A stretch of DNA of 64,000 nt from Terebella lapidaria (taxonomy: Eukaryota > Annelida > Polychaeta > Terebellida > Terebellidae). Of this stretch, positions 24,576 through 64,000 are shown one piece after another. Below the pieces are notes generated by a model. The model was given only the letters and a program-made list of their open reading frames with translations, made no database searches and was not told the origin of the DNA. Made by a program: the position numbers and the translations under genes. The stretch covers positions 8,172,181 to 8,236,180 of the forward strand of contig OX424570.1 in the NCBI GenBank assembly GCA_949152475.1. The letters are read 5' to 3'. Each line of letters opens with the position of its first letter. The first letter of the stretch is position 1.

Positions 24576-25269
24576 TGACTTGAGGTTGAAATTATGACTT
24601 TTCTCTGCTCATTGCATTTAGTGAGTAATATTTTTGCATTATATAATGCGTTCTGTGCATTGCGTGCATGAATGTGTATGCAAATTGCATGTGTATGACT
24701 TGTAAATATCAATATATAACACAATATTACATGTGTATATATCAATATATAACCCAATACTCCAGTAATGCATATCTAGCGTCGACTTATAAATTACATC
24801 GGTGGATGTATATAAATAATACTGCAAGCTAGATGTACTGTTACTTTATTATAAATCGAACTCTTATATATGGGCGTATGTGATTTGCCATCCCACGTTG
24901 TCCAAAATATTCTAGATATACTGTATGTGTGCATGCTTACAGCATTTGTACAGTACTCTAAGATGAACCTAAATATAATACAGGATTTTCGAAGAGGACT
25001 TTATGTATGTGTATTAATACAAATTGGGCATGTTAGCTGTACGCTTTGCTTTCACACTATGTCATATTTGTGATATAGCGGTATGTACATTGCATGATAG
25101 TGTATGTATTTCGCCTACTTTATATGTAATCAAGATATGCCATAGGAACTATAGAATTTACGAAAGATTTCTTGTAAACATGTGTTTTGTATAAATACCA
25201 TATTAGTTGTGTAACATCTGGGTGCAAACGGATCTTTGAGCGCTTGACGTAATACCGTAGCCTAATACA
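24576..25269 (+). other. Inter-ORF spacer of the non-LTR element
   Basis: 694 bp of AT-rich sequence between ORF1 and ORF2 with many stops in all frames. ORF1 is in frame 3 and ORF2 in frame 1. ORF2 must therefore be reached by reinitiation, an internal start or a separate RNA rather than a simple frameshift. No conserved element is recognised. Confidence 0.6.
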
Positions 25270-28200: not shown

Positions 28201-28956
28201 TATCTTAAGTTCGTTTTAGGAGTCAATAAATGGTCTAGTAACTCGGCTGTCAGGGCTGAACTCGGAAGATTCCCTATATCTATCAAAGCAATGTCCTTGG
28301 GTGTAAAATATTGGCACAAGATTGCGTGCGGCAACACCCCGAATGCTCTCTTAGTAGCCGCCTATACTTCCACGAACGAGAGACCATCTGCGTGGTTACA
28401 GTCGATTGAGTACGTCATTAAAATGACTGGTATGAACTACGTGTGGGAAAATCCCCTATCTATAACAAACAAATACATTTACCACAAAATTAAGCATATA
28501 CTTTGTGATCAATATGTACAAAACTTTTTTGCAAACCAGCCGTATGATGCTTGCGGTTTGAATGGTATTAAGGATACATACATATTTAGTAACTACCTCT
28601 CTATCATTCAATCGCCATCGATGCGAAGCACATTCACAAAATTTAGAATAGGGAATATACACAAATATGTTCGAAACAGTGATATCAGTTGCCCCCTGTG
28701 TTCCTCAAATGTTAACAATGGCCTTCACCATGTATTTTTGCATTGTAAAACTGACAAAGTATATAATCTAAGAAACGGTTTTGACCATGATATGAAAAAA
28801 CTCATAAAAAATTACGAACGTATGTCTGACAAAGAGAAGTTATTCACCATTTTAGATCTAAGGACAGACAAATGTTGCAATAAAGAAAAGTATCAACAAT
28901 TTATAAGGTTAGTAACTTCCTATATTAAAGCAATGCAGGTGATCCTAAAAGAGTAG
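25270..28956 (+). CDS. Non-LTR ORF2: APE-type endonuclease and reverse transcriptase
   Basis: 1228 residues, uninterrupted. Residues 1-~270 form an apurinic-endonuclease-like domain with Asn11, Glu39 in FVETWL, Asp156/Asn158 in IIMGDLNSR, and Asp265/His266 in SDHSPIG. This domain nicks target DNA to prime reverse transcription. The RT domain spans about 500-800: KSSGIDSITNDML, then YRGIAISSCLGKLFSSLI, FIDFRKFFDTINRD (Asp649), SGMKQGCNLSPALSNIY, and LSWADDLVLLS with the catalytic pair Asp749/Asp750. The usual Tyr before ADD is Trp here. The C-terminus carries a C-x2-C-x8/9-H-x4-C knuckle (from Cys1141, CPLCSSNVNNGLHHVFLHC). No RNase H domain is seen. Length and order are typical of jockey/CR1/I-like ORF2. 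The start ATG at 25270 gives a complete endonuclease. Confidence 0.93.
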   Translation: MKHNLKIGSVNIEGGLNDKLSLPDLYNIVKSFDIFIFVETWLHSDDQRVSLDGYGHFRSDRKKNKRAKRGSGGVCVFFRNNIAKGLQKIKSKNDDCMWIKFDKHFFDITDDIYVCCCYLPPETSSVLTTCKIDVHDILLEEITFFQNKGEVIIMGDLNSRTGEKQETWININSISMDGHVDCDYVPLPIRFCQDNKCNSYGRRLIDTLNECHLLILNGRTPGDLLGLQTYHGYNGSSCIDLGIVSDKLYSRIQYFKVYDTPWFSDHSPIGLCMSTGIINNNTSRCNLVNPPLKYKWDEQGKQEYIRISRSDNAICDMNSIVNNFNLSGSEAVSKLTDLIRSFAEESLKPMNPIAKSKNKYPCKWSRDSETADAKKYFKHTRHIFNKDLTSLDKRQQFLNAKKKYKKSIKNFQRNSKSSCWNKLASMEKDNPKGFWKEVNHILGKNQKEQQPVEPEEWVSHFKTLLNSQADNSDTQFQEYVRSGLSTIENCSSSPGVLDFPLTEEELSTALKKLRRGKSSGIDSITNDMLIDGGLCLHQTILHIFNKLLSEGCYPSSWQSNIIVPIFKSGAKTDPDNYRGIAISSCLGKLFSSLINSRLESFLKTNNMISINQNGFKKDHRTEDNIFILQSLYDKYVKSMGNKLYVAFIDFRKFFDTINRDFLYYKLQKMGITGNVYNVIKSMYASCFYHIKCDDGITDKIRSSSGMKQGCNLSPALSNIYQNDIHDIFGDSCHPVSLGAHKFNSLSWADDLVLLSTSPAGLQNCLDALYKYCFKWAININPVKTKCMVMSKGKCKHCPTFTLNESVLENTKQTTYLGFVITSNMSHSAMMDDRILKANRASFVLRKAIMSSNNSSINVNIAISLFDKIISPILLYGCSIWGMPTSNNLIYLNGVQEGGDTRAATNNAFYKISGQHIQFCSAKRVGKIDINTPRPILVNVGRLQDKLLLLNNSPLDNNHVVNYDSRSEKIAYEKMHSKYLKFVLGVNKWSSNSAVRAELGRFPISIKAMSLGVKYWHKIACGNTPNALLVAAYTSTNERPSAWLQSIEYVIKMTGMNYVWENPLSITNKYIYHKIKHILCDQYVQNFFANQPYDACGLNGIKDTYIFSNYLSIIQSPSMRSTFTKFRIGNIHKYVRNSDISCPLCSSNVNNGLHHVFLHCKTDKVYNLRNGFDHDMKKLIKNYERMSDKEKLFTILDLRTDKCCNKEKYQQFIRLVTSYIKAMQVILKE

Positions 28957-46589: not shown

Positions 46590-46990
46590 CTAATTAGGTT
46601 ACCGAACCTATGGTCTGATAACCTATTGGCGTTGCGTCCGGCGTTCGTCGTCTGTCGTCGTCCACATTTTTATCTTTTCTGTTTACGGTCGAATTTTTCT
46701 GAAATTTTGCGCAAAAATGCTTAAAAATAATTCAAGAAGGACGTATTTTTTAGTTTTTTGATTTTGGCATTGTTTTTCAAAATGGCTACCGTTTTCGACA
46801 AAAATGTCCTGATTTTGGACTTTGGCGGCCATTTTCTCAAAATCTGTTCAGTTTCTTTTTAATTTTTTCATACATAACACTCCTCGTATGTACTCTTATG
46901 ACGTCTATAAATTTCGTTGCCCTTGAATTACTCGAAGTGGGCCATTTTGGCCCAAACTCGACCCAAATGGGATTTTCCCATGTTAAATTC
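46590..46990. repeat. CGTCGTC-rich lead-in to the tandem array
   Basis: Begins AGGTTACCGAACCTATGG and carries GTTCGTCGTCTGTCGTCGTC before T-rich sequence and copies of ATTTTGGAC/CATTTTGGCC. It directly precedes the 134-bp array and probably belongs to the same non-autonomous repeat. No coding potential. Confidence 0.55.
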
Positions 46991-48600
46991 TCCTATATGC
47001 TTCATAATGGGACACATTATGACTAATATCTCACTTAATATTGAGATTAGAGACTAGGAATCAATTGTGGACATATAGGGAATGATATATGCTGAATATT
47101 CTGATGACCTTGAATTTGACCTTTGACCTCATTTTCAAGGTCACAGGACAAAATGGCTAATATCTCGCTTGTTATGTACTTTACAGCTTAGGAATCAATT
47201 ATGAACATATAGGAAATGATATATGCAGATTATTGTCATGACCTTGAATTTGACCTTTGACCTCATTTTCAAGGTCACAGGACAAAATGGCTAATATCTC
47301 ACTTATTATCGATTTTACAGCTTAGGAATCAATTGTGGACATACAGGAAATGGTATATGCTGAATTTTTTTGTGACCTTGAATTTAACCTCTGACCTCAT
47401 TTTCAAGGTCAAGAGCAAAAAATGGCTAATATCTCGCTCATTATCGACTTTACAACTTAGTAATCATATGGACATATAGGAAATGATATGTGCCGAATAT
47501 TCTGATGAACTTGAATTTGACCTTTGACCTAATTTTCAAGGTCACAGGACAAAATGGCTAATATCTCGCTTCTAATTGACTTTGCAGCTTGGGAATCAAT
47601 TATGAACATATAGGAAATTATATATACAGATTATTCTCATGACCTTCAATTTGATCTTTGACCTAAATTTTAAGGGCACAGGACAAAATGACTAATATCT
47701 TCCTTATTATCAATTTTACAGCTTAAGAATCACTTGTGAACATATAGAAAATGATATATGATATATATAGAAAATGATATATTGCCATGACCTTGAATTC
47801 GACCTTTGACCTCATTTTCAAGGTCAAAGGACAAAATGGCTATTATCTTGCTCCTCTATTGATTTTATGGCTTGGGAACCAATTGTGGACATATAGAAAA
47901 TGACATACACTGAATATTTCGATGACCTTGAATTTGACCTTGAACTTATTTTCAAGGTCAGAGCACAAAATTGCTTATTATCAACTTCACAGCTTAGGAT
48001 TCAATAGTGAACATATAGGGAATGATATATGCTGAATATTTTGGTGACCTTGAATTTGACCTGTAACCTCATTTTCCAGGTCAGAGAACAAAATAGCTAA
48101 TATCTCCCTTGTTATCGACTTCAAAGCTCAGGAATCAACTGCGAACAGGGAATGATATATGCTGAATATTCTCATGAACTTGAACTTGATTTCTGACCTC
48201 ACTTTCAAGGTCAGATCACAAATGGCTGATATTACCAACTTTACAGCTTAGGAATCAGTTGTGGTCAAACTCCAAATGATTATGCTGAATATTTTCATGA
48301 CCTCGACTTGCTAATGACCTCATTTTCAAGTTTCCTTTGACCTGATCCTCACGGTGACAGGACAAAATGGCTAGTATCTCACTTATTCACTTCATAGTGT
48401 GGGAATCAATAAAGGACATATAGGAAATGTTATACGCCAAATTTTCTGATGAGTTTCAATTTGACCTTTGCTTTCATTTTCAAGATAACAGTACAAAATT
48501 GCTAACATCTCTCTGATTATTGAATTTACAGCTTAGCAATCAACTGTGGCTATGTTGTATGCTTAATATTATATATGCTGAATATTCGCTTGACTTTGGA
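46991..48600. repeat. ~134-bp tandem array, about 11 diverged units
   Basis: Units repeat with spacing near 134 bp (for example TGACCTTTGACCT or variants starting at 47117, 47251, 47385, 47518, 47652, 47800). Each unit contains GACCTTGAATTTGACCTTTG, then CATTTTCAAGGTCA, then a GACAAAATGGCTAATATCTC-like block and a GGAATCAATTGTGGACATAT-like block. TGACCTTTGACCT is a direct repeat of the nuclear-receptor half-site with 1-bp spacing (DR1). Divergence increases towards the 3' end. Confidence 0.9.
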
Positions 48601-51450: not shown

Positions 51451-52562
51451 TCCTTTCTTTGGTTTAAATCATATTTATTCAAAATTGAGCATTGATCAGC
51501 AGGGCAAGCCCTATTTTAAGATCTCTGCTGGTGCATTTCTACATGGTGCATATGCATAGTTCAGTTTAAAATAGGAACAAAGAAACATATATACATCAGA
51601 TGTATCTACACTATTTACAACAAAACATAAACAAAATAGATGATGATAAAATAAATAGGACGCTACAATACGACACAATTAGTTAAACAACCATTCATAC
51701 ATACATATAATATAATTTGAGGTACCTAATATTACATCTATGTTTACATGACAAACAATATAACGAAAAATAATTCCTGTTTTTTTTTTACACAACGTCG
51801 CAATATCAATATCAGAAACAATACATTACTATTTATACATAGTACACTGATGCATACCGATCGGTGATCACAAAATGCTGTAGTGTATGAAGACTCTGAT
51901 GTAAATGATTCGGTGCAGGTGGGAACAACCCCCGTTAATCATCCACAAAAAGCCTTGTGATTTTGTGAATATATATATGTGTATGCGGATGTATCCGTGG
52001 ATGATTCGGTGCGGGTGGGAACAACCCCCGTTAATCATTCACATGTTAAGGCCTTGTGATATGACAAATTTGTATTATGATGCACTGTATGTAGGCTAAG
52101 TGTATCAAGTGAGTGATTCAGTGCGGGTGGTAACAACCCCCGTTAATCACTCACATATTCGATTTATTTTATTTATTATTTTTTTGTTTTCGTGGCAAGA
52201 GATTAAATAATGCTTTTGTTTGTAGGTGTGTCCCGACAAATGATTCGGTGCGGGTGGGAGCAACCCCCGTTAATCAATTGTCAGGTGAAGTGAATGTAGA
52301 CCCTATAATCGTGCTTCACAGTATTCATGCATGCAGTATGCACCAGTGTTCTTAAATCCTGGGATCTCAAGGGTAGGTAAATATTTGATTACCGTAATAC
52401 GGTGAACTTATTCGGCTTAGAAATTGGACCACAGAGCTCCAAGTCAATCAGAAAAATCTATGGGTGGATTTAATAAAACTATGAACTGCCGTCACGATCG
52501 ACTTGTTGTCATGATACGACAACGTTGTGTCACCGTGAAGAAGCACATCTAAGGTGAGCTGC
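51451..52562 (-). mobile_element. Non-LTR retrotransposon, 3' part, left of the Gypsy insertion
   Basis: The minus-strand 3' end of the element whose upstream part lies at 63400-64000. The last ~38 codons of its RT ORF run from 52562 down to the stop at 52448-52450 in the frame carried over from the other side of the LTR element. A ~1-kb 3' UTR follows; it contains four hairpin repeats (51901-52284) and an AATAAA signal (plus-strand TTTATT at 51474-51479) before an A/G-rich end near 51450. The 4-bp CTGC at 52559-52562 is one copy of the Gypsy target duplication. Confidence 0.8.
51901..52284 (-). repeat. Four hairpin repeats with conserved loop and covarying stems
   Basis: Four units share the core CGGTGCGGGTGGGAACAACC plus CCCGTT, with minor changes. 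Each is enclosed by inverted arms: 51901-51910/51937-51946 (8 of 10 paired), 51997-52006/52033-52042 (one wobble), 52109-52118/52145-52154 (perfect, GTGAGTGATT with AATCACTCAC) and 52235-52245/52272-52282 (GACAAATGATT with AATCAATTGTC, one mismatch). The arm sequences differ between units, but pairing is kept by matching changes on both sides. Spacing is 96, 112 and 126 bp. They lie in the 3' UTR of the minus-strand non-LTR element. Confidence 0.8.
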
Positions 52563-52862
52563 TGTAGTAGAAACAGCTAGTAGAAACAGCAAGTGCTGCC
52601 ACCTGGGGAATATAAACGAAATTTATCAAGTATTTAGTGCTGCCCCTATCGACTATAACCTCCGTCATCCCCCGTACGGTGCTGCCTTTGTGGGAGGAAC
52701 ACGAGATACAGGGTAGAAGAACGCCAACCCCCGAGAAGAACGGACCGGATCTCCGCTGCTGCTGATCGTTGCTGTGTCGGAGCCGCGGATTGTCGTTCTT
52801 GATTCCTTCTTCTCAACTTGTCACTGGTATTTATCCAAGTATTATAAACCAGTTATACTATA
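52563..52862 (+). repeat. 5' LTR of the Gypsy element
   Basis: 300 bp, TGTAGT...ACTATA, short imperfect inverted ends. A TATA-like AATATAAA at 52609-52616 could drive transcription. It differs from the 3' LTR at four sites (two adjacent near 52687, one near 52757, one near 52840). Confidence 0.92.
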
Positions 52863-52864
52863 TT

Positions 52865-52878
52865 TGGTGTCAGAAGTG
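52865..52878 (+). promoter_or_regulatory. Primer-binding site, tRNA-Leu type
   Basis: TGGTGTCAGAAGTG, two bases after the 5' LTR, is complementary to the CCA-bearing 3' end typical of tRNA-Leu (known to be used by several Gypsy families). It primes minus-strand DNA synthesis. Confidence 0.82.
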
Positions 52879-53910
52879 ATTCGGGCGCCTGTATAGTAAT
52901 TATCAGTGACACTTAGAAAATATTTTTGCATGGAAAATTTCCATGTGCTTTCACTGGTAAATTAGTGAAGCGTGACGAAAGGCCACCTAAACGTCCCGTA
53001 TTGATTTTTTTTTTCACGGGCTTTGCATTGCCGGGTCCTGTAATTGACTGGACAGTAGTCTAAAGTGTATAGCTCGTGTACATAAGGCACGCGCGCCGGA
53101 TTAGGGAGTTGTATAATTTAGCTTGTCCTGTCTCCGACATGGGACGGGCTGTCACTGTAAATTTACAGTAACAGTTAGTTTTAGTTTGCCATTATCAGTT
53201 TGTTTCTGTCTCTGTCATAGCACAAACTGTACTATAATTAGAAAGTTTTTTTTTTCACTTAGCATTGTGCTCAGTGTACATCAGCATACTTGAGTGATTT
53301 ATAGACTGAACCAATTCTAGTTTGTAGATTACGTTAGTATAAAAAGTTAAACATTTCTGGTATATTGTAAATTTTTCAAAACAACTTAATTTTCCCTAAA
53401 TTGTAGTGGATCTAATTTAATCTTTAATATTTTGAAGTGTATTTTGAGTCAGATATTTCTGTCCAGAATATAAAATAGATCTACATCTGTTTTTTTTCTT
53501 ATCTCATATTATACATCTAAAAACTATTTCGGCAACTAGTCTATTAACGATAGATTAGTATTAATTTTTCAATTTAATAAATTTTGGGAAATAATTTAAA
53601 TTTTCCTAACTAAAACTTTACATATTATCATCTTAGATAATTAGGGGTAGGAGTAGTGTGTATCTACTATATAATATCTGATATTACATACATTTTCGTG
53701 GTACTGCGCATTCGTTATATTGTGGATTTGCAACTTCGTGCTTAGTCAGATTCACACTAAAGTGTGAACTTATAATATTATAGTATTCAACTGGTAAAAT
53801 AATACATTATTTTCAATTTAACAAAATCAGTACGTCCTGTAATTAGATAAGACATCTAACACGAGTAACTAACACGTCGCTGTGAGCACACTCACGCAAG
53901 CAATTTCGAC
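52879..53910 (+). other. 5' untranslated leader of the Gypsy element
   Basis: About 1 kb of AT-rich, stop-dense sequence between the primer-binding site and the first ORF. It presumably carries packaging and translation signals; none can be identified by eye. Confidence 0.6.
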
Positions 53911-54651
53911 ATGGTGCTGATTGATTTAAACACCGCCACACTTGATGAGCTGAAAAGCATAAATGGCATTGGTGATGCTCGGGCCACAGCGATTCTTGGT
54001 CTACAATCACCAAGTCCGATAACGATGCCTCAGTTGGTAGCCGTCACAAACCTGCCAGCCAGATTTTTCCAAGATCTCATCAGTGATTGCAAGATTGTCG
54101 ACATCCCTGTTGATGTGGCAACTGATCCATCAATTCCTGGTGCACTTGCTCACACCATGGAAGACCCACGGGATGCTGATTTTTCACCACTCCCCGTCCC
54201 GCAGTCACAGCACATAGATGCTCGTGATGAGGAACTTCGAAGGAAGACGGAAGAAGTCAACTACTTGAACATGATGTTGGAACGTCAACAACAACAGATG
54301 GCGTACGAGATGGGTATCGCTCTTCAACGCCAAAAAGATGAAATCAAGTACCAGCTGGAACTTCAAAAAAAAAGAATGGAAGAGGAGTTTGAGTATCAGA
54401 GGGCACTGAAACTTCGAAGATCTAAAGACTTTTCAGACTCTGATGCTTCACATAGGAGTCGTAGAACTGTCCTGAGACAATCTGTCCAACAACACAAAAT
54501 CCAGCAGCCACCTCCACCACCGCCACAACCTGTTGACGCTGTCTGCGTGATCCAATCACATCCGAATGTAACCTCAACTGATCAGATTGACGAAATACAG
54601 GAGGTCAACACAAAGGAGATTGAGACATCACCTACAGGAGTGAAAAATTGA
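53911..54651 (+). CDS. Gypsy 5' ORF: helix-hairpin-helix and coiled-coil protein
   Basis: 246 residues in frame 1. The N-terminus (residues 1-~65, LNTATLDELKSINGIGDARA) matches the helix-hairpin-helix DNA-binding motif seen in ComEA-type proteins. Residues about 105-175 are a charged coiled coil (RRKTEEVNYLNMMLERQQQQ). A Pro run (PPPPPPQP) follows near residue 202. It ends 34 bp before the gag ORF in the next frame. Together the two could be one gag precursor split by a frameshift, or a separate accessory protein. HhH modules bind DNA non-specifically through the backbone, so a role in nucleic-acid binding is plausible. HhH at this place in a Gypsy element is unusual to my knowledge. Confidence 0.75.
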   Translation: MVLIDLNTATLDELKSINGIGDARATAILGLQSPSPITMPQLVAVTNLPARFFQDLISDCKIVDIPVDVATDPSIPGALAHTMEDPRDADFSPLPVPQSQHIDARDEELRRKTEEVNYLNMMLERQQQQMAYEMGIALQRQKDEIKYQLELQKKRMEEEFEYQRALKLRRSKDFSDSDASHRSRRTVLRQSVQQHKIQQPPPPPPQPVDAVCVIQSHPNVTSTDQIDEIQEVNTKEIETSPTGVKN

Positions 54652-54685
54652 CAGCAGGAACTCCCAAGAGCACTTCATAGACCAA

Positions 54686-56491
54686 ATGTTACGCTCAACA
54701 GTTTATAATGCAGTTCCTCCAGAGTCCAATTTACCTCTCCAACAGAAACTGGGCTCAGATCCACAAAACCTTCAGCAGATACAAACAGTTGTTGCCCAAC
54801 ACGTGACTCAACCTGAACACGGTTCAGTGTTTCAGGGCGTCAGCGCTCCCCAGCCACCACTGAGTCACAGTAGTCCAAAAGTAACAAGTGATCAATCACC
54901 TTGGCATGGTATGAACCAAAAGTTGGAGAAAGTCTTCAACAAATGGCAACATGAGGGTGGACTTGGTCTCAAGCAGGAAGGGAATATCCAACCATCCACA
55001 AATTATCTGCCCAGCTCCAAACTTGATACTCGTTTACCAAAGTGTGATCCAGGCTTGAGTTTCAACCAAAGATCTGCTGGTCGCCAAGACGATAAATCGA
55101 AACATTTCAATACACGTCACCATGAAGATCCGTTGTGGTCCGGCCACCAAGATGTGAAACCTAGCCGGTCAACTCGAAGCCGCTCTGTCGCTTGTCATCT
55201 GCACAGATTCAGCTCCAGCCCACAGTCGTCTGACACAGAAGCTGAACAAAAGCCGAGAGCTTCAATCAATGCTTCCACCCGTCGAAGAAGATTCAGCACT
55301 TTTGAATCTACCTCAGATTCAGAAGGTCATGATAGCATTCATCATAGGTCGAGACATGCAACCTCAGACACAGGAAGATCTCGAAAGTCAAGGTCAAGAC
55401 GGGATGATTATCAGGATCGTCACTACTCAACCTGGCAACTTCGTCAAGACAGAGGTCCGCATCGTCAAGATGGAGGTCGGGATCGTCAAGTTCGAGAATG
55501 GGATCGTCAGGATCGAGATAGGGACCTAGGTCATCAAGATCGTGATAGAGATCGCAATGAAGGTCGAGATCGTCAAGACTGGAATGGAGATCAGGGCCGA
55601 GATCGAGAACGCAAGCACCACCACGGCCAGTACCGACATAATTCCGATGATGAGTACCGTCATGGTCATCACCATGATAGACGTTTCAGACCAGGAAATC
55701 GAGGTCCACCGCCACCAAAGATGTCTACCTTTGGGGGAAAACCCAAAGACTGGGAACCTTTTTACTTGCAGTTCAAGAACACAGCTCGAATGAATGACTG
55801 GACACGACCAGAGAAATTGGAAAGACTGTTGACTAGTCTGAGAGGACCAGCCATCAAATTTGTTTACACAAAGCCAGCTGTAATCCGTCGGGACTACAAG
55901 ATGTTGGTGGATGTGCTAACGGAAAGGTATGGTCAGATAGACCCACCCAAGTCCATACGGAAACAACTCCTTTCCATCCGTCAGGAGGAAAACGAAACCT
56001 TAGAAGATTTTGCAGATAGGGTTCTGACCATGACTTTCGATGGCTACCCTTCTGCTGATGATGACCTGGCACAGTCGATAGCAGTGGACAACTTTCTGAA
56101 AGGTTGTAAGGAGAGAGGCGCTGTATTCATGACCCTGGAAAAAGAGCCACAGACGGTCCATGAAGCCTTGACCAGCCTGAAGCGAACTCTTCACAACCAG
56201 AAAGTGGTGACACAATCCAAAACTTATTCGACTCGACAAGTGAGCTTCGACTTAGGTTCAATGGGACTCGAAGACAGCCCAAAGGTACAAGCAGTGGGAA
56301 ACAGCACTGAAAGTAGAAAAATGGAACAATTAGTCCAACAGTTGTCGTCCGCTATGACTGTTGGATTTGACAAAATGAACCAACTACTAACTCGCCACAT
56401 GAGATCCCCAAGTCCATCACCAGTTCGGGATTCTCGAAACCGAGAACTGGAGCGTCGAGAGACAAATACTGCAAGGGACCTTCAACTCTAA
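54686..56491 (+). CDS. Gypsy gag (capsid) protein
   Basis: 601 residues in frame 2. The first ~190 residues are polar and low in complexity. Residues about 190-345 are very rich in Arg, Asp, Ser, His and Gln (RDRDLGHQDRDRDRNEGRDR). Residues about 350-515 match the retrotransposon gag/capsid fold: PKDWEPFYLQFKNTARMNDW, AIKFVYTKPAVIRRDYKM, then LLSIRQEENETLEDFADRVL. The C-terminus is basic. The CCHC knuckle expected after the capsid lies just downstream but in another frame (56545-56682). It starts at the ATG at 54686. Gag builds the virus-like particle in which reverse transcription occurs. Confidence 0.85.
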   Translation: MLRSTVYNAVPPESNLPLQQKLGSDPQNLQQIQTVVAQHVTQPEHGSVFQGVSAPQPPLSHSSPKVTSDQSPWHGMNQKLEKVFNKWQHEGGLGLKQEGNIQPSTNYLPSSKLDTRLPKCDPGLSFNQRSAGRQDDKSKHFNTRHHEDPLWSGHQDVKPSRSTRSRSVACHLHRFSSSPQSSDTEAEQKPRASINASTRRRRFSTFESTSDSEGHDSIHHRSRHATSDTGRSRKSRSRRDDYQDRHYSTWQLRQDRGPHRQDGGRDRQVREWDRQDRDRDLGHQDRDRDRNEGRDRQDWNGDQGRDRERKHHHGQYRHNSDDEYRHGHHHDRRFRPGNRGPPPPKMSTFGGKPKDWEPFYLQFKNTARMNDWTRPEKLERLLTSLRGPAIKFVYTKPAVIRRDYKMLVDVLTERYGQIDPPKSIRKQLLSIRQEENETLEDFADRVLTMTFDGYPSADDDLAQSIAVDNFLKGCKERGAVFMTLEKEPQTVHEALTSLKRTLHNQKVVTQSKTYSTRQVSFDLGSMGLEDSPKVQAVGNSTESRKMEQLVQQLSSAMTVGFDKMNQLLTRHMRSPSPSPVRDSRNRELERRETNTARDLQL

Positions 56492-56544
56492 TTTCCAGAT
56501 TCAACTCGAGATCACCATCACCAACTAGGAGCTACAATGGTAAA

Positions 56545-56682
56545 ATGGTATGTTTCCATTGCCAACAACCAGGACACTTTGCGAGGGAATGTCCCCAAAA
56601 GCGGGAAAAGTCAACCTCACCGATCCGGTCACCCGACTCCATCACAGGGAATGGAGTTTTAAACTCCAAAGAGCTGAAGTAG
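56545..56682 (+). CDS. Gag nucleocapsid zinc knuckle, displaced frame
   Basis: Frame 1 encodes CFHCQQPGHFARECPQK, a perfect C-x2-C-x4-H-x4-C retroviral-type knuckle that binds RNA. It ends at TAG 56680-56682. The capsid ORF is in frame 2 and the protease in frame 3, so the knuckle is linked to both only by frame changes (each a -1 step). Either this copy carries small indels or the family uses frameshifting. The frame is open upstream to about the end of the capsid ORF, so a -1 shift near 56490 would join them. Confidence 0.75.
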   Translation: MVCFHCQQPGHFARECPQKREKSTSPIRSPDSITGNGVLNSKELK

Positions 56683-58574
56683 GAGGCCAACTTTCAGCTC
56701 TTCCTCCAAAGTGCCTCACAACAGGACCTGAAGCTCCCATTAAGCTAGAAAATGATGAGGTTATTAATCACATGTCTCGTGCTGATACCTTAGGGATAAC
56801 TGTTGCGGCTTCGCCTGCACAAGCCTTCTCTTGTGTCACAAATGATTCTTGTGATTCAGTTGTTGACACCACAGGGACTGTTGCGGCTCCGTCTGCACAG
56901 GCTCCGCTTGGTGTCACAAATGATGTTTGTGATTTTTCCTCAGGTAACGGTGAATATGCCATTAACAACATCCACGAAGTCACAACGTCAACACCACATT
57001 GGACAATGACTGTTCCGGTGATGATAAATAGCGTCAAGTTATCCGCCGTAGTCGACACTGCTGCTGAGATAACTTTGATCAACAACCGTATGGCTCAACG
57101 CGTACACCTAGATTTGAGGTCTTCAGTCGATTTTCCAATGAAAGGTGCATTCCATGGCTCCGATTCTACTGGACGACTTGTAAAAAGCGTCAGGCTTCAG
57201 CTGGGTTGCCACACCTATCCATGGGATGTAGTAGTCGCTAATATCCATGAAGACATGTTACTTGGTTGCGATTTTTTGAAATCACACTCTGCTCAAATAG
57301 ATTTTCTGAAGAACGTTTTGTCTATCAACAATGACATAATTGTGGCGGAAAGCAAAGTTGGTCCTGGTGGGACCAAAGTCTTGATCCAACGTGTGGTACT
57401 GAAGCGTGGAATCGTGGTACCGCCTAATAGCATGAAGGTCGCTATAGGTCATCTTCCATCAAAACCTACTGACTCCCTTGGAATCATCGCCATTGAGCCG
57501 ATAGGTGAACATCATCAACTTTTGATACCCAGGATGGTTTCTCGATTCCAGCCGGAATTTCCGATTTGCCTTTGTAATAGTACCAACAAGTATATTCGAC
57601 TAAAAGTTCAGCATCAGATTGGCACGTGTGAGGAGGTGGAGGCCATAGAGGGTGACCAGAGGGTGGATTCTGATTCTGATGCGGCGTCTCCCGATGCTTC
57701 TGAAGACGCAAATCTGCTGTCTCTGCGCCAACCTGAAATGGTCTGCCAAATTTCTACCAAGGATGAAGTGTGTGAATCGACAGTGCCTGCACATTTGCAA
57801 AAGTTGTTTATGGACAGCTGCACTGAGTTGGATGAGCCCCAGTCTTCACGAGTTGCAAAACTGCTGACTGAGTACTCAGATGTTTTTTCTAAACATGATT
57901 TTGATTTAGGAAGATTTTCAGAAATCCAACACCGCATAGACACTGGTGATGCTGCTCCTGTCCGTCAACGGATGCGCCGAACACCAATGGGTTTTGAGCA
58001 GGAGGAAGAACAGTGTGTTAACAAAATGCTAGAAGCTGTGGTGATCAAGCCTTCACAGTCAGAGTGGGCATCCGCTCCAGTGCTGATAAGGAAAAAAGAT
58101 GGCAGTGTTCGATACTGCATAGATTATCGCCAGCTAAATGCAAGAACGGTGAAGGACGCTTTTCCTTTACCACTGATTGAACAGTGCTTCGACAGTTTGA
58201 GAGGAACACAATATTTCAGTACTCTGGACCTCTCATCAGGGTACTGGCAAGTTGCTATGCATCCTGATGACCGACACAAAACTGCATTCATCACAAAATC
58301 GGGTCTCTATGAGCATGTTAGGATGGGATTCGGTCTCTGCAATGCCTCTGCCACGTTTCAACGAATCATCAATCTAATTCTCCGTGGAATGATTTGGAAG
58401 GAGGTGTTGGCATACATCGATGATGTGATCGTGATGGGTAAAACCTTTGAAGATCATATAAAGAATCTTGAAAGAGTATTTCAACGCTTTTGCACCAGCA
58501 CCCTGAAACTGAAACCTAGAAAATGTGTCCTCATGAAAACTTCCGTTGAATTTCTAGGCAAGAGGATAGGGTGA
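56550..58574 (+). CDS. Gypsy pol, first part: protease and reverse transcriptase
   Basis: 674 residues in frame 3, ending at TGA 58572-58574. The first ~45 residues overlap the zinc knuckle out of frame and are probably not real. An aspartic protease follows, with the active site VVDTAAEITLIN (Asp169). RT follows: VLIRKKDGSVRYCIDYRQLN, LDLSSGYWQVAMHP, FGLCNASATFQRI, and AYIDDVIVMG with Asp624/Asp625. The open frame resumes directly after the TGA in the same frame (RT thumb, RNase H, integrase), so the stop is a single nonsense change in an otherwise continuous pol. A repeated motif near residues 85-130 (ACTGTTGCGGCT-type units) gives two near-identical Ala/Gln stretches. Confidence 0.9.
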   Translation: MFPLPTTRTLCEGMSPKAGKVNLTDPVTRLHHREWSFKLQRAEVGGQLSALPPKCLTTGPEAPIKLENDEVINHMSRADTLGITVAASPAQAFSCVTNDSCDSVVDTTGTVAAPSAQAPLGVTNDVCDFSSGNGEYAINNIHEVTTSTPHWTMTVPVMINSVKLSAVVDTAAEITLINNRMAQRVHLDLRSSVDFPMKGAFHGSDSTGRLVKSVRLQLGCHTYPWDVVVANIHEDMLLGCDFLKSHSAQIDFLKNVLSINNDIIVAESKVGPGGTKVLIQRVVLKRGIVVPPNSMKVAIGHLPSKPTDSLGIIAIEPIGEHHQLLIPRMVSRFQPEFPICLCNSTNKYIRLKVQHQIGTCEEVEAIEGDQRVDSDSDAASPDASEDANLLSLRQPEMVCQISTKDEVCESTVPAHLQKLFMDSCTELDEPQSSRVAKLLTEYSDVFSKHDFDLGRFSEIQHRIDTGDAAPVRQRMRRTPMGFEQEEEQCVNKMLEAVVIKPSQSEWASAPVLIRKKDGSVRYCIDYRQLNARTVKDAFPLPLIEQCFDSLRGTQYFSTLDLSSGYWQVAMHPDDRHKTAFITKSGLYEHVRMGFGLCNASATFQRIINLILRGMIWKEVLAYIDDVIVMGKTFEDHIKNLERVFQRFCTSTLKLKPRKCVLMKTSVEFLGKRIG

Positions 58575-58610
58575 GAAGGAATCAGCGTTAGCGACTCCAA
58601 AGTCAAATGT

Positions 58611-61241
58611 GTGCAATCTTGGTCCCGCCCTCAAAACAAGAAAGATGTGGAGTCTTTCTTAGGCTTTATGAATTATCATCGAGAATTTGTGCCTCAATTT
58701 GCTCAACTCAGCATTCCTTTGTATGCTCTCACTGGCAAAGGTACCTTCTCCTGGGGACCAGAACAGGAAGAAGCTTTTCAGACACTTAAAACCAAGGTAG
58801 TAGAGGCTACAGTGCTGAGATATCCAGATGATGAAGGACTATTCATCTTAGACACAGACGCTTCTGATGTAGCTGTGGGAGCTGCTCTTTCACAAGTACA
58901 GAATGGTAAGGAAGTGCCCATTGCCTTTGCCAGCAAGGTCTTGAATGGTCCACGGCGGAAATACTGCACAACAAGGAAGGAACTTTTAGCCGTGGTCGCT
59001 TTCACTCGACACTTCCGTCATTATTTGCTAGGTCGCAAATTCATCGTCCGCACAGATCATCACAGCTTGGTGTGGTTAACTAGATTTCGCCACCCGGAAG
59101 GACAACTCGCCAGATGGTTAGAAGAGGTCAGCCAGTTTGACATGACAATCCAGCATCGAGCTGGGAGCAAACATCAAAATGCTGATGGTTTGTCACGAAT
59201 TCCAGATGAGCTAACTCGCTGCGATTGTTATCAAGCCGGACAAGAATTGACGGACCTACCTTGTGGAGGTTGTAGTTATTGTGCCAGAGCACATCGACAA
59301 TGGGCTCGTTTTTCTGTTGAAGTTGATGACGTAATTCCCCTCGCAGTTCGAAGTGTATCAACCGTTGCAACTGTCAATAACGTCTATGGCTGTGACGTTC
59401 AGTGTGTATCTTCTGGGGGGTCTCCCGATCCCAAGGAGGATAGTTCATTGAGTGTTCAGCCTACTACATTGTCCTGGAAAAATTCTCGGTATGCGTGTTC
59501 AGGTGGGTCTTCCGATCCTAATGAAGACGCCACACTGAGGATTCGGTCAGTCAAAATAGACTCAGAAGAATCGGGGAATGTTACTCTCTCCTCGTACACC
59601 AGCGATGAACTGAGAAAATTTCAGCTAAACGATACAGACATCAAGCCAGTTCTTGTATGGTTGGAGGGGGAGAGTGAGCCAACATCAGCTGAATTATTCC
59701 TGAAATCACCAGCGACCAAGCGACTATGGACCTGCAAGTCACATCTGCAATGTGTGAATGGAGTGTTGTATTACCGCTGGGAGGGTAATATCTCATCAAA
59801 ACTCAAGTTGGTCGTACCGGTCAATCTCAAGGATGAGGTACTCCACCTTTGCCATGATATCAAGTCAGTTGGTCACCTAGGACAAAACAAAACTTTGGAA
59901 CGTCTGAAGCAATCATTTTTCTGGCATAACATGACCATTGATTCAAATCTTTATGTGAGGAGCTGTGCAACCTGCAACCAGAACAAGAAATCTTCACGTA
60001 CCCCGAGGTCAGGACTATCAACATTTCATGCTGGCACTCCAATGGAACGATTGCACATAGATATGATGGGACCGTTCGTCGAGAGTTCCAGCAAGAACAA
60101 ATATATCCTGATGATCGTGGATCAATTCACGAAGTGGGTCGAATGTTTGGCTGTACCGGATCAGTCTGCAGAGATGACGGCATCAACTCTAATTGACAAT
60201 TTCATCACACGGTTTGGGGTTCCCTGCGAAATACATTCTGATCAAGGCAGAAATTTTGATGGGAAACTTTTCAATGCAGTATGTCGTCTCTTGGAAATAA
60301 CTAAGACACGAACCACACCTTATCGACCTAGTTCAAATGGCCAGGTAGAACGCCACAATCGCACAGTGCTGCAGTGCATTCGCTGCTATGTAGGGAGTAA
60401 ACAAAAACATTGGGATCGTGATTTACCCTTGATCGCCATGGCCATACGAAGCACCATCAACAGGAGTACCGGATTTACTCCCAACTTCCTGATGTTGGGT
60501 CGAGAGATCTCTATCGCAGAAGAAGTGTTGGGTATACGCAACATTAACTCTGATAACGATGATAGTATGCCAGACTATGTTCAGAAGCTACTGTTACGGA
60601 TGAGGAAAGCTCATGAAGTAGCTCGAACAACACTACAAAACGAACAACGAGTTCAGAAGAAATACTACGATCTTCGCCAAAGGCATACTGACAAAGGTGA
60701 TCTAGTATACAAACTCGACACATCCAGCAAAGTTGGACAAAGCAAGAAGCTCCGACATGTTTATATCGGACCATATTATCTGGTGACCGAGGTCATATCA
60801 CCAATTCTGTATAGAATTGAGGATCGCAAGGGAAAGTATGTCATTCACCACGACCGCCTCAAGATTTGTCGGGACAGAGCCATTCCCTTGTGGATTCGGA
60901 AGCTCCGTCACCGACTATTGGAAGAAGAATCGTTCTCAGAGGAAGAGGGTAGTCTAGATCTGGGTGACATCTTTAGTGGGTCTCCCGATCTGGATGAAGA
61001 TGTCACACCGGTACAACTACCTGTAGACGAGAGAGATGTTTCAACCCTGAGTAACACCTTTAATGGGTCTCCCGATCCTGAAGTTGTTACACGGGTACAG
61101 CCACCTGCCAGAGAGTATAACCCTGCAAGTGACGCTCACATACAGGAAGGGGATTTAGCCAAACTCTTTAACCAACCTACCTTCACGAGGACAGGACGCC
61201 AGATTAAACCACCTCGTCACCTACAAGATTATTCAGTGTAA
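58611..61241 (+). CDS. Gypsy pol, second part: RNase H and integrase
   Basis: 876 residues in the same frame as the first pol part; the nominal start at 58611 follows the TGA. RNase H: LDTDASDVAVGAALSQV, SKVLNGPRRKYCTTRKELLA, RTDHHSLVWL and HQNADGLSRIP. Integrase: an HHCC zinc-binding region (GHLGQNKTLERLK, then CATCNQNK) and a catalytic core with Asp484, Asp544 and Glu580, spacing 59 and 35 (DD35E). The C-terminal GPY/F module contains HVYIGPYYLVTEV. The linker after RNase H and the C-terminal tail both contain repeated GSPDP/GSSDPNED-like motifs. The ORF ends 95 bp before the TatD ORF. Integrase would insert the cDNA; the upstream TGA would prevent its synthesis unless read through. Confidence 0.92.
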   Translation: MQSWSRPQNKKDVESFLGFMNYHREFVPQFAQLSIPLYALTGKGTFSWGPEQEEAFQTLKTKVVEATVLRYPDDEGLFILDTDASDVAVGAALSQVQNGKEVPIAFASKVLNGPRRKYCTTRKELLAVVAFTRHFRHYLLGRKFIVRTDHHSLVWLTRFRHPEGQLARWLEEVSQFDMTIQHRAGSKHQNADGLSRIPDELTRCDCYQAGQELTDLPCGGCSYCARAHRQWARFSVEVDDVIPLAVRSVSTVATVNNVYGCDVQCVSSGGSPDPKEDSSLSVQPTTLSWKNSRYACSGGSSDPNEDATLRIRSVKIDSEESGNVTLSSYTSDELRKFQLNDTDIKPVLVWLEGESEPTSAELFLKSPATKRLWTCKSHLQCVNGVLYYRWEGNISSKLKLVVPVNLKDEVLHLCHDIKSVGHLGQNKTLERLKQSFFWHNMTIDSNLYVRSCATCNQNKKSSRTPRSGLSTFHAGTPMERLHIDMMGPFVESSSKNKYILMIVDQFTKWVECLAVPDQSAEMTASTLIDNFITRFGVPCEIHSDQGRNFDGKLFNAVCRLLEITKTRTTPYRPSSNGQVERHNRTVLQCIRCYVGSKQKHWDRDLPLIAMAIRSTINRSTGFTPNFLMLGREISIAEEVLGIRNINSDNDDSMPDYVQKLLLRMRKAHEVARTTLQNEQRVQKKYYDLRQRHTDKGDLVYKLDTSSKVGQSKKLRHVYIGPYYLVTEVISPILYRIEDRKGKYVIHHDRLKICRDRAIPLWIRKLRHRLLEEESFSEEEGSLDLGDIFSGSPDLDEDVTPVQLPVDERDVSTLSNTFNGSPDPEVVTRVQPPAREYNPASDAHIQEGDLAKLFNQPTFTRTGRQIKPPRHLQDYSV

Positions 61242-61336
61242 ACGGCGACTATTTAAGATCCAAAATACTAACCATAGAGTTAAGAATATCCAATTATCTA
61301 AATATTCCCAAGTAAAAGTTTTCAGAAACAACCAAC
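61242..61336 (+). other. Short spacer between pol and the TatD ORF
   Basis: 95 bp, AT-rich. It could contain a splice acceptor for a subgenomic RNA, but none is certain. Confidence 0.4.
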
Positions 61337-62821
61337 ATGGAAGGCGACTGGCAGGATCAGCTGGATTATGAGGAGGAGATGCCAGAGGAGGGAGTTTCGA
61401 CCTCTACGTCGGACAAAGTAGAGGAGGACCTCAAGCGTCCTAGCACGTCTGAGGAGGCGGGTCTCTCGAAGAAGAAAAAGAAGAAGCCCAAGCGACAGGA
61501 ATGTCCCATATGCCAGACCTTGACGCGAAACCGGCTTCGTCGGCATGTAGAGGAGGCCCACCTCCCCTGGTACTATGACCCTCACTTGTGCTGCTGGACC
61601 TGCGAGAAGAGCTACTTCTGTGTGGGTCTTTTGAAGAAACATCATGGCCCTGACCAGCCTGGGCATGACAGGGAGTCCCTCCTGACGGATGAACACCTTC
61701 AGCGCTGGTGCCGCCTCATGTGCGGGTTTTTGACACATATCGCCTTTCTCTTTGGCAAGACCACGCCAGAGGGACTGCTGGAGATGGTCCAGAAACAGGG
61801 CCTACATCCGAGTCATCTGCCACTGACGGAGCAATATCAACTGCAGTACCGGATGTTTGACAGGTATTACCAAACTACAGAAGTTGGTGTCTGCCGAGTG
61901 GATCCCCCGAACAGAGCATCCAGTCTACTCCATTGGACCATCACTACCCAGCTGTTGGCGCGATTGCCTACAGAGGCTAGATCCGACTTACGAACGTACA
62001 TGCAGTCGGGGCCTCGTCAGTGGGGCTTGAGGTTGGAAACTGTCGACGCTCATTGTCATCTCGACAAGATGTTGTCTCCCAGATACCCTGGAGTGGATGA
62101 GTTGGCAGCGGATCATCAAGGACGTGGCCTCAGCTGCTGGAGGATGTTATGCTGTTTGGCATTTCCAAGCCGGTGGCTCCGTCTACCTACCTTGGAGAAG
62201 TCGGACAGTATCCTCTTCCAGATGGGGCTGCACCCCAGAGTTGCTGACCTGCCAGTGTCTGACCAAACGTTTGATGACTTAGTAAGGTTACTGCGCCATC
62301 CCCGATGTGTTGCGCTAGGAGAAGTCGGCCTGGACTACGGCCACAGTGATCAACCAGCCCGAAGATGTCAAAAACTTTTCCTGGCAAGAATTCTCCCCGT
62401 AGCTGTTGAACACAAGAAACCGGTGGTCATCCATGCCCGTCAAGATAGCGACCCCGACGAGGTCTACCAGGATGTGCTGGACATCCTTCAACAGCATGTA
62501 CCAGCTGGACATCTCATCTATTTGCACTGCTTCGCTGGAAGCCTGCGCCAGGTGTCAATGTGGACGAAAGCGTTCCCGAACTGTTATTTTGGGTTTGGGT
62601 CGAAGATCATCGACAACAATTCAGGGGAACTCGCCCAGACTCTGCAGGAGTTGCCGCAAGATCGGATCCTTCTCGAGAGCGATGCCCCCTTCTTACTTCC
62701 CCACCCCTGGGCACTGAGGCCCGTAGTGGATGCGATCGCTCGAGCACGCAATCTAGCGCCAGTCATGGTCTGCGACCTAGCCAAGCAGAACGCCTGCCGG
62801 CTGTTTGGGATAGCTGAGTAA
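61337..62821 (+). CDS. Zinc-finger/TatD-family nuclease carried by the Gypsy element
   Basis: 494 residues, intact and intronless, in frame 2, GC-richer than pol. The N-terminus is acidic and Ser/Thr-rich, then carries a KKKKKKPKR basic stretch (45-53, a likely nuclear signal). Two C2H2-type fingers follow: Cys56/Cys59/His70/His75 and Cys86/Cys89/His102-103. Residues ~110-235 are unassigned. Residues 236-494 are a TatD-type metal-dependent hydrolase with every ligand motif: DAHCHLD (His239, His241), GEVGLDY (Glu329), VVIHARQ (His366), YLHCFAGS (His397), LESDAPF (Asp449) and a NACRLFG end. TatD proteins are 3'-5' exonucleases/DNases; animal TATDN2 is the nearest named type, though this is inferred. 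It lies inside the LTRs in the env-like position, so it is element cargo. Function in the element (DNA processing, defence, copy control) is unknown. Confidence 0.92.
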   Translation: MEGDWQDQLDYEEEMPEEGVSTSTSDKVEEDLKRPSTSEEAGLSKKKKKKPKRQECPICQTLTRNRLRRHVEEAHLPWYYDPHLCCWTCEKSYFCVGLLKKHHGPDQPGHDRESLLTDEHLQRWCRLMCGFLTHIAFLFGKTTPEGLLEMVQKQGLHPSHLPLTEQYQLQYRMFDRYYQTTEVGVCRVDPPNRASSLLHWTITTQLLARLPTEARSDLRTYMQSGPRQWGLRLETVDAHCHLDKMLSPRYPGVDELAADHQGRGLSCWRMLCCLAFPSRWLRLPTLEKSDSILFQMGLHPRVADLPVSDQTFDDLVRLLRHPRCVALGEVGLDYGHSDQPARRCQKLFLARILPVAVEHKKPVVIHARQDSDPDEVYQDVLDILQQHVPAGHLIYLHCFAGSLRQVSMWTKAFPNCYFGFGSKIIDNNSGELAQTLQELPQDRILLESDAPFLLPHPWALRPVVDAIARARNLAPVMVCDLAKQNACRLFGIAE

Positions 62822-63085
62822 CTTAGTGTGTATGGTTCTCTGTCGTTGGTTCTCGTCTCCGTTATGATTATCAATGATGGAGAGCAATCATCTCATATTT
62901 CATCGCTTTCGGCTGTTGGTCAGTTGTCTCCGTCATGACTACTGACAGCTGGGGGTGAACTCATTGAACTCATTTATCACCCTTGTGAATAGTTGTATAT
63001 ACTGTACATATAGCCAAGTTGGGCTCTAGTTTCATTTGGGGAACTTCAACATAATTTTTATGGAATAAACACAACCTAGTTTTTC
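62822..63085 (+). other. 3' untranslated region of the Gypsy internal part
   Basis: About 260 bp with no coding signal. A GAATAAA (63063-63069) lies just upstream of the polypurine tract. Confidence 0.5.
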
Positions 63086-63099
63086 AAAACGGGGAAGGG
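63086..63099 (+). promoter_or_regulatory. Polypurine tract
   Basis: AAAACGGGGAAGGG immediately before the 3' LTR; it primes plus-strand DNA synthesis in LTR elements. Confidence 0.85.
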
Positions 63100-63399
63100 T
63101 GTAGTAGAAACAGCTAGTAGAAACAGCAAGTGCTGCCACCTGGGGAATATAAACGAAATTTATCAAGTATTTAGTGCTGCCCCTATCGACTATAACCTCC
63201 GTCATCCCCCGTACGGTGCTGCCCCTGTGGGAGGAACACGAGATACAGGGTAGAAGAACGCCAACCCCCGAGAAGAACGGACCGGATCTCTGCTGCTGCT
63301 GATCGTTGCTGTGTCGGAGCCGCGGATTGTCGTTCTTGATTCCTTCTTCTCAACTTGTCACTGGTATTTATCCAAATATTATAAACCAGTTATACTATA
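63100..63399 (+). repeat. 3' LTR of the Gypsy element
   Basis: 300 bp, four differences from the 5' LTR, followed by the second CTGC target copy at 63400-63403. Confidence 0.92.
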
Positions 63400-64000
63400 C
63401 TGCTGAAAGCCGATCAATTTCGAAAACATGATGTCACGTGCAAATGAATGTAAAGGGCACTCAAATAAATAATGCTGCGCGTCTTCATTTGAGTGTCCAC
63501 ATAAACAACCAGGGTCGCTTTCCACATGCAAGTTGAAATGAAGATGCGATTTTAATGCACTGCATCCCAGACGAATGCGAGTGTAATGGACATCGCAAGC
63601 ACGCTCCCCCACGCCAAACCAAGGAAATTTCGGTGGGCTTGGGATATGTTGCAACAGTTTGCGTTTAAACGTTTGCAGTGTAGGAGAATTACGGATGTCA
63701 AGGGGAAGCTGGTTCCAATCCCTTGTTGTTGTGGGGAAAAATGAATTACTGAAGCGATAACTATTAGTGCGAAAGAGGGTAATATCATTGTTATTACGCA
63801 ACGTGTAACCATGACGATCGGCAGTGGAAGGAGGGACCAAATCGGCTAGGTACGAAGGAACAAGCCCATTCAGTATCTTATAATACCAAACAAGCCTATG
63901 AATTTTACGTCTTTGTGACAAAGGATGCCATCCGGCATCAACATACAATCTAGAAGTAGATTGTATGTTCCTTTCTTTGAAAATATATCCTTCATTTACA
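63400..64000 (-). CDS. Non-LTR reverse transcriptase, C-terminal part, cut by Gypsy and by the window edge
   Basis: The minus-strand frame is open from the window end to the LTR border. It encodes the post-RT region of a non-LTR ORF2: HPLSQRRKIHRLVWYYKILN, GLVPSYLADLVPP, TRDWNQLPLDIRNSPTLQTF, and a knuckle CLCGHSNEDAQHYLFEC (C-x-C-x8-H-x4-C, first pair spaced by one residue). At 63400 the Gypsy element interrupts it. If one CTGC copy is discounted, the same frame resumes at 52562 and reaches a stop at 52448. The endonuclease and RT core must lie beyond 64000. The nominal start near 63948 is not a real start. It is inactive as disrupted. Confidence 0.87.

What the first reader, a model, noticed from the sequence alone, without database searches (positions are those of the whole stretch)
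61337..62821. Gypsy retrotransposon carrying an intact zinc-finger/TatD nuclease in the env position
The sequence shows a 494-residue intronless ORF between pol and the polypurine tract, bounded by two near-identical LTRs with a target duplication, so it is element cargo and not a neighbouring host gene. All TatD metal ligands are present (HxH, Glu, His, His, Asp), and two C2H2-type fingers plus a basic stretch precede them. TatD DNases are known host and bacterial enzymes; I know of no described Gypsy family that encodes one. The ORF is intact while pol has a nonsense codon, and its base composition is GC-richer than pol, which suggests capture from a host mRNA. Possible roles are trimming of cDNA ends, removal of unintegrated competitor DNA, or counter-defence in the nucleus.
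Basis: partly seen in the sequence, partly recalled or inferred. Interest (0 to 1): 0.88.

Follow-up and report, generated by a model that had tools for sequence, protein, structure and literature searches.

The report
Jumping genes with a TatD nuclease
A lineage of virus-like jumping genes in an unidentified, probably animal, genome carries as its third gene a zinc-finger TatD nuclease resembling a host repair enzyme, and natural selection keeps it intact, so it probably performs a step of the element's life cycle that has not been assigned yet.

Summary
The 494-aa ORF at 61337-62821 lies inside an LTR retroelement (52563-63399; LTRs 296/300 identical, duplication CTGC), between integrase and the polypurine tract. 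It is not a passenger: all ten LTR pairs and the one lone LTR of this family found by LTR search enclose or adjoin it. The same zinc-module + TatD ORF follows integrase in 11 further families; these integrases form one clade. Of 76 integrase hits at 49% identity or more, 66 have TatD within 5 kb downstream; of 13 more distant, none (capped lists). TatD and integrase diverged together (Mantel r 0.89). Omega is 0.21 in 9 family-A copies, and 0.14 against 0.29 for the integrase part in the same six. A pol-deleted subfamily keeps it. Three TatD-less relatives read have a finger-bearing ORF in the same place. Splice-acceptor-like sites precede most of these ORFs; no convincing donor was found. The domain lies with a host TATDN2-like gene, apart from bacterial TatD. 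Activity, substrate and expression are untested. Probably a conserved auxiliary nuclease: a new enzyme in a known slot.

The parts
52559..52562 (.). target-site duplication CTGC, left copy
   Evidence: equals 63400-63403; 4-bp duplication also in 7 of 9 other family-A elements with two LTRs
52563..52862 (+). 5' LTR, 300 bp
   Evidence: 296/300 identical to 63100-63399; 26 genome matches
52865..52878 (+). primer-binding-site-like TGGTGTCAGAAGTG
   Evidence: 2 nt after the LTR; TGGTGTCAGAA shared by families A, B, F, I; matching tRNA not tested
53911..54651 (+). ORF1, helix-hairpin-helix motif (gag N-terminal region)
   Evidence: PF00633 1.8e-5; in one frame with gag in the copies of families B, F, I read
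54686..56491 (+). gag
   Evidence: weak DUF1759/PNMA matches, both under Pfam's cut-off; gag matches in B, F, I and a TatD-less relative
56550..58574 (+). pol, first part: protease and reverse transcriptase, ended by an in-frame stop in this copy
   Evidence: gag-asp_proteas 2.9e-11, RVT_1 9.3e-30
58575..61241 (+). pol, second part: RNase H, H2C2 zinc domain, integrase core, p58-type C-terminal domain
   Evidence: open frame 888 aa here, 1565-1566 at 3 of 9 family-A places
61317..61325 (+). splice-acceptor-like agttttcag, 11 nt before the ATG (weak in this family)
   Evidence: the best acceptor score near this ATG is ordinary (43% of control ATGs as good), unlike most other families
61337..62821 (+). 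zinc-module + TatD nuclease ORF (494 aa) in the env position
   Evidence: purifying selection
61364..61378 (+). N-terminal acidic motif DYEEE (F-x-PDY-[EDQ]-E in the 12 other families read)
   Evidence: by eye
61502..61645 (+). zinc module C-x2-C-x10-H-x4-H-LPWY-x5-CCWTC-x13-H
   Evidence: ligands invariant in the 18 rows
62042..62809 (+). TatD metal-dependent nuclease domain
   Evidence: PF01026 2.8e-46
63086..63099 (+). polypurine tract AAAACGGGGAAGGG
   Evidence: abuts 3' LTR
63100..63399 (+). 3' LTR, 300 bp
63400..63403 (.). target-site duplication CTGC, right copy

Best explanation
The ORF is the third gene of a clade of Gypsy-type LTR retrotransposons. SHOWN: it lies between integrase and the polypurine tract; it carries a zinc module and a TatD domain with all metal ligands; it has descended together with integrase; it is kept by purifying selection; three relatives without TatD have a finger-bearing ORF at the same place. 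INFERRED: it is made from a spliced subgenomic RNA, as env is in retroviruses; it binds element nucleic acid through its zinc module and basic stretch; and it works as a metal-dependent nuclease of the TATDN2 type (on RNA in RNA:DNA hybrids, or on 3' ends) while the element finishes its cDNA or while integration gaps are repaired. Because pol-deleted copies keep gag and TatD, it probably acts on the particle or nucleic acid of the copy that encodes it, rather than as a freely shared enzyme. Most likely history: an older finger-bearing ORF gained a host TATDN2-like nuclease domain once, at the base of this clade; loss in the relatives is the alternative.
For: 10 of 10 LTR pairs and the lone LTR of family A have the ORF; 9 of these 11 copies have the full 494-aa frame. 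66 of 76 integrase hits at 49% identity or more have TatD within 5 kb downstream, 0 of 13 below that (from capped lists). Integrase tree: 21 TatD-bearing rows one clade, 100/100. TatD tree has the same groups; Mantel r 0.89, p 1e-4 over 12 families. Omega 0.205 in 9 family-A copies, 2dlnL 27.8, p 1.3e-7; same six copies 0.138 TatD vs 0.293 integrase part. Amino-acid changes are rare among shared TatD changes (A 2 of 16; pol-less F 4 of 24) and commoner among singletons (12 of 28; 30 of 48), Fisher p 0.049 and 0.00035. Nine pol-less F copies share one deletion junction; omega of eight 0.265, 2dlnL 38.0. LTRs identical 505/505 (one family-I copy), 287/287 (one B copy), 266/266 compared (one pol-less F copy). 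Acceptor-like sites before 16 ORF starts score above 1298 control ATGs, p 1.2e-8. TatD domain lies with the host TATDN2-like gene and apart from bacterial TatD, branch 96/93. [quoted passage not shown]
Against: No transcript, protein or activity data; no structure model. No 5' splice donor over my threshold in five leaders; one candidate just inside gag of family F. No spliced copy among 7 family-I leader matches. Acceptor score is ordinary in families A (0.43), O (0.39), Q (0.20) and one outgroup (0.17). In family F, pol-less and complete copies interleave on the TatD tree, so recombination could refresh TatD in pol-less copies and weaken the copy-favouring argument. Omega is only weakly below 1 in the six complete F copies (0.44, p 0.018); single pairs in D, E and I/J gave 0.55-0.75 on few changes. 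The shared/singleton contrast was not seen in the family-A integrase part (shared 4 of 8 nonsynonymous, singletons 11 of 29). Pfam finds no C2H2 family over its cut-off in the three TatD-less ORFs; their fingers are read by eye. Substrate is argued from the TATDN2 grouping alone; the test of one capture is inconclusive (AU p 0.44).
Confidence: 0.55

Rival explanations
1. Counter-defence: the nuclease degrades host nucleic acids that silence the element (small-RNA precursors, antisense RNA) or sensed cDNA, instead of processing the element's own cDNA.
For: Accessory position; strong divergence between families (43-74% different) while catalytic residues stay fixed; a TatD relative is among bacterial defence models (PADLOC QatD, E 1.5e-19).
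Against: Retention by pol-less copies suggests benefit to the encoding copy, whereas counter-defence would be shared by all copies; no direct evidence either way.
Confidence: 0.2
2. The protein acts mainly as a nucleic-acid-binding or targeting factor (zinc module, basic stretch, acidic N-terminal motif); TatD catalysis is secondary.
For: Finger-bearing ORFs without TatD sit at the same position in three more distant elements, one with a FVPDYNEE motif; the N-terminal part is as constrained as the TatD part in family A (0.156 vs 0.219).
Against: All six metal ligands invariant in 20 of 20 rows, unexpected if catalysis were dispensable.
Confidence: 0.2
3. Expression is not by cis-splicing but by reinitiation or internal entry after pol (95 nt gap in the window), or by trans-splicing of a leader.
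For: No 5' donor over threshold in five leaders; an acceptor directly at the ATG would also fit leader trans-splicing.
Against: Acceptor-like context in most families, TatD-less relatives included.
Confidence: 0.35
4. Neutral passenger: a host gene copied once by chance.
For: The TatD domain is of a host type.
Against: Clade-wide presence, co-descent and purifying selection.
Confidence: 0.02

Closest known systems
Bdelloid rotifer LTR retrotransposons Vesta and Juno with DEDDy-exonuclease or GDSL-esterase ORF3 (PMC5408684; abstract, sections 3.3 and 4 read)
   Same: Enzymatic non-env third ORF, invariant residues said to be intact, one type a nuclease; a zinc Cys-His-Cys motif noted in Vesta2 and Vesta5.
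   Different: Different nuclease fold; there the ORF3 is missing from the earliest branches and shows no significant departure from neutrality; here one pol clade carries it throughout and it is under purifying selection.
Host TATDN2 (human/medaka; PMC12709183, passages read)
   Same: TatD domain lies with a TATDN2-like gene of this genome rather than with bacterial TatD.
   Different: The host exon read has a long, seemingly disordered N-terminus and, by eye, no such zinc module; the element ORF is intronless with its own zinc module.
Orchid Ty3/Gypsy elements with an m6A demethylase domain (PMC9289625; search listing with start of abstract only)
   Same: A nucleic-acid enzyme domain acquired by a Gypsy element.
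   Different: Different enzyme; plant host; titled a recent acquisition.
Gypsy/Errantivirus env (recalled)
   Same: Third ORF after integrase, made from a spliced RNA.
   Different: No envelope homology; a nuclease instead.
QatD of the bacterial Qatuor defence system (PADLOC model match; the system is recalled)
   Same: TatD-family nuclease in a conflict setting.
   Different: Bacterial, other partner proteins, no zinc module (recalled).

Membership tests
Ty3/Gypsy LTR retrotransposon | pol order protease-RT-RNase H-integrase between two LTRs | tested here: met
Ty3/Gypsy LTR retrotransposon | short target duplication, PBS and PPT | tested here: met
   4-bp duplication in the window and 7 of 9 others; PBS-like and PPT sequences read; tRNA not tested
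Ty3/Gypsy LTR retrotransposon | RT tree placement among named Gypsy clades | not tested
   no reference set was used
TatD nuclease family | PF01026 above cut-off with all metal ligands | tested here: met
   158.4 bits, cut-off 27; ligands
TatD nuclease family | metal-dependent nuclease activity | not testable with these tools
   needs purified protein
TATDN2 subfamily | lies with host TATDN2-like gene against other TatD | tested here: met
   branch 96/93; host row joined from exons; 'TATDN2-like' is my reading of its long N-terminus, not a database name
TATDN2 subfamily | element-type TatDs form one clade (single capture) | tested here: inconclusive
   13 element rows held together with 12 database proteins: AU p 0.44, neither rejected nor shown
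env-bearing retrovirus-like element | third ORF encodes a membrane fusion protein | tested here: not met
   TatD instead
env-bearing retrovirus-like element | third ORF made from spliced RNA | tested here: inconclusive
   acceptor-like sites enriched, no convincing donor, no RNA data

The most novel reading that the evidence does not exclude
A whole clade of Gypsy-type elements uses a self-encoded zinc-finger TatD nuclease as a required, copy-favouring enzyme beside RT, RNase H and integrase: a nuclease step of LTR retrotransposition (RNA:DNA hybrid or 3'-end processing, or post-integration repair) that other retroelements would borrow from the host. The gene arose when a spliced finger-bearing accessory ORF gained a TATDN2-like domain, and it is kept even by pol-less derivatives.
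Probability: 0.33. Interest if true: 0.87.

Novelty: new variant of a known kind. Interest (0 to 1): 0.72.

Why it matters
Enzymatic third ORFs in LTR elements are known, but the bdelloid cases were reported without significant departure from neutrality (PMC5408684, section 4). Here a nuclease of a host repair family is tied to one pol clade, evolves in family A under at least as much constraint as the integrase part of the same copies, and survives in derivatives that lost pol. That makes a question testable: which nucleolytic step of retrotransposition, or which host barrier, is worth encoding oneself? It also warns annotators: TATDN2-like genes in high copy number may be retroelement genes. 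The TATDN2 annotated in the giant squid Hox region (PMC6962438, figure-legend passage) is a candidate to check; it was not checked here.

Tried and rejected
Passenger/one-off capture: rejected. Neighbouring host gene: rejected (LTRs, duplication, copies). Recent capture from GC contrast: rejected, the contrast is general. IMG/VR scan with the protein: no match. Protein search with the host TATDN2-like exon to name the host: one unnamed hit; the host species stays unknown, and the COX1 search meant for it did not complete. Spliced retrocopies of family I: none among 7 leader matches; the same search for family F did not complete. Splice-site weights were my own, from recalled consensus, not trained; two of the 16 starts (family K and outgroup L047) are internal ATGs that I chose because the motif or the fingers begin there. 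Literature: ten searches listed no paper that I could recognise as describing TatD in a retrotransposon; this was judged from titles and starts of abstracts, with passages read in PMC6962438 and PMC5408686 (a human TATDN2 retrocopy). The library is open-access only and Repbase is not covered. Structure prediction was polled through and never finished, so no fold search was made.

Rows dropped: from the nine-copy omega of family A, L010 (altered N-terminus) and L011 (truncated); from the six-copy comparison also L006, L007, L008 (integrase part broken, shortened or mostly missing); from the pol-less omega L028 (altered start region), leaving 8 of 9. L063-L065 were fetched without their first codons, so the complete-copy and joint F sets were compared on 435 and 434 codons. 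One search left out the more diverged database rows P0011, P0012, P0014-P0017.

Full report
What is there. The window (G000:C17:8172181-8236180) ends with an LTR retroelement at 52563-63399. Its LTRs are 300 bp, 296/300 identical, flanked by CTGC on both sides, with a purine tract directly before the 3' LTR. Inside are a helix-hairpin-helix ORF (53911-54651), gag (54686-56491), pol with protease, RT, RNase H and integrase (56550-61241, one in-frame stop in this copy) and a 494-aa ORF (61337-62821) with TatD_DNase at E 2.8e-46.

Is it cargo of the family? A genome search with the protein gave 88 matches (87 of 353 candidates scored), 65 of 88 with no stop inside the match. Eleven are the window itself or 98-99% identical to it. 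The LTR search, which does not depend on TatD, gave 26 matches: ten LTR pairs, nine with 10.5-11.2 kb from start to start and one with 1.9 kb that holds part of TatD; one lone 3' LTR; one partial match; four diverged ones (69-79%). All ten pairs and the lone LTR go with the eleven TatD copies. The partial match and three of the four diverged ones have no listed TatD match near them. Four-bp duplications flank 7 of the 9 other two-LTR copies, the short one included; two of nine lack them.

How far does the association go? A search with the integrase part gave 89 scored matches of 7325 candidates. With TatD positions (150 listed rows), 66 of 76 matches at 49% identity or more have TatD within 5 kb downstream on the same strand; 0 of 13 below 49%. 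The lists are capped, so these are not full censuses. Three of the ten exceptions were read: one deleted between integrase and the 3' LTR, one cut at the start of the ORF, one with the zinc module and part of TatD; seven were not read. In an integrase tree of 24 rows the 21 TatD-bearing rows, 12 families by my count, are one clade at 100/100, against three TatD-less rows. The TatD tree has the same groups, N with H and K only weakly (83/33), and family E is placed differently with weak support. Distances correlate at r 0.89 over 12 families. Three database proteins from unnamed sources, 40-43% identical to the window ORF, nest beside family A; whether they lie in retroelements is unknown.

Anatomy of the ORF. 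The families read share an N-terminal F-x-PDY-[EDQ]-E motif (LDYEEE in family A), a basic stretch in most, a zinc module with C56, C59, H70, H75, C86, C89, H103 invariant in the 18 rows, and the six TatD ligands. Three of the 13 more distant elements were read (L045-L047, integrase 39-44%): no TatD, but an ORF of 426-640 aa at the same place that begins, by eye, with C2H2-like fingers; one also holds FVPDYNEE. Pfam gives these fingers no match over a cut-off. I take this as an older finger-bearing ORF, with TatD gained in one clade; loss in the others is not excluded.

Expression. A pyrimidine-rich stretch ending in AG lies 0-19 nt before the start codon in most families, TatD-less ones included. 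Scored against 1298 other ATGs of the same loci, 12 of 16 starts are at or above the 90% quantile and 9 of 16 at or above the 95% quantile, p 1.2e-8; the families are related, the weights are mine and two starts are chosen internal ATGs, so this p is optimistic. The window's own site is ordinary by this score. In eight pol-less F copies the block about 200 nt before the ATG differs by 0.7% against 2.3-2.6% in the three blocks upstream of it; the outermost block, badly aligned, by 13.6%. No donor over threshold was seen in five leaders, one just inside gag of family F. Splicing is thus a reasoned guess.

Selection. Nine family-A copies: omega 0.205, lnL -2345.52 against -2359.44 at omega 1. Same six copies: TatD 0.138, integrase part 0.293. 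Changes shared by several copies are mostly silent (A 14 of 16, pol-less F 20 of 24), singletons less so (16 of 28, 18 of 48), Fisher p 0.049 and 0.00035, as expected if selection acts while the element replicates and stops after insertion. The family-A integrase part does not show this contrast. Other families have few changes; single pairs in D, E and I/J gave 0.55-0.75.

Natural deletion test. In family F nine copies share one junction that joins gag to the integrase tail. In the copy whose upstream stretch was read, gag is an open frame of 611 aa with its HHH motif, no protease or RT match was found, and the LTRs are identical over 266 compared bases. Their TatD frames are without stops, one with an altered start region, and eight of them give omega 0.265, 2dlnL 38.0. 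Pol can be lent by other copies; TatD was kept. Caveat: complete and pol-less copies interleave on the TatD tree, so recombination may help, and six complete F copies give only 0.44, p 0.018.

Origin and function. The TatD domain lies with a host gene that has a long N-terminus (TATDN2-like by my reading, L048), apart from bacterial TatD and a second host TatD gene, branch 96/93. [quoted passage not shown] From this I infer a nuclease acting on RNA:DNA hybrids or 3' ends of the element's cDNA. Counter-defence and a mainly binding role are the chief rivals.

Known or new. Ten paper searches, judged from listings, showed no TatD-bearing retrotransposon. The closest described case is the enzymatic ORF3 of bdelloid rotifer elements (PMC5408684, abstract and two sections read). 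I call this a new variant of a known kind.

Noticed in passing
window 21885-28953 (+): An 896-aa frame with a NADAR domain (PF08719, 1.4e-23) and a weak GDSL-lipase match under its cut-off lies before a 1231-aa endonuclease-reverse transcriptase frame: it looks like a non-LTR retrotransposon whose first ORF carries NADAR.
   Followed up: no
window 53911-54651; L051, L052, L053, L054: A helix-hairpin-helix motif begins the gag region in the copies of families A, B, F and I read but was not matched in the one TatD-less relative read upstream (L054): a possible second clade marker.
   Followed up: partly
P0014: A TatD protein filed under a bacterial MAG (Candidatus Thiodiazotropha endolucinida) groups with a Dreissena polymorpha protein, P0016 (97/99); possibly host DNA in the symbiont assembly.
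   Followed up: no
L040, L068: Family O shows tandem copies of the ORF: a 302-aa and a 517-aa frame in L040, two partial ones in L068.
   Followed up: no
C8:7200797-7202991 (L011): LTR - part of TatD - LTR mini-element of about 2.2 kb with its own 4-bp duplication.
   Followed up: partly
window 59400-61077: Repeated GSPD-like acidic motif in the C-terminal part of pol.
   Followed up: no
window 17523-18066 and 46934-48165: A perfect 272-bp tandem duplication and an array with a period of about 134 bp.
   Followed up: no
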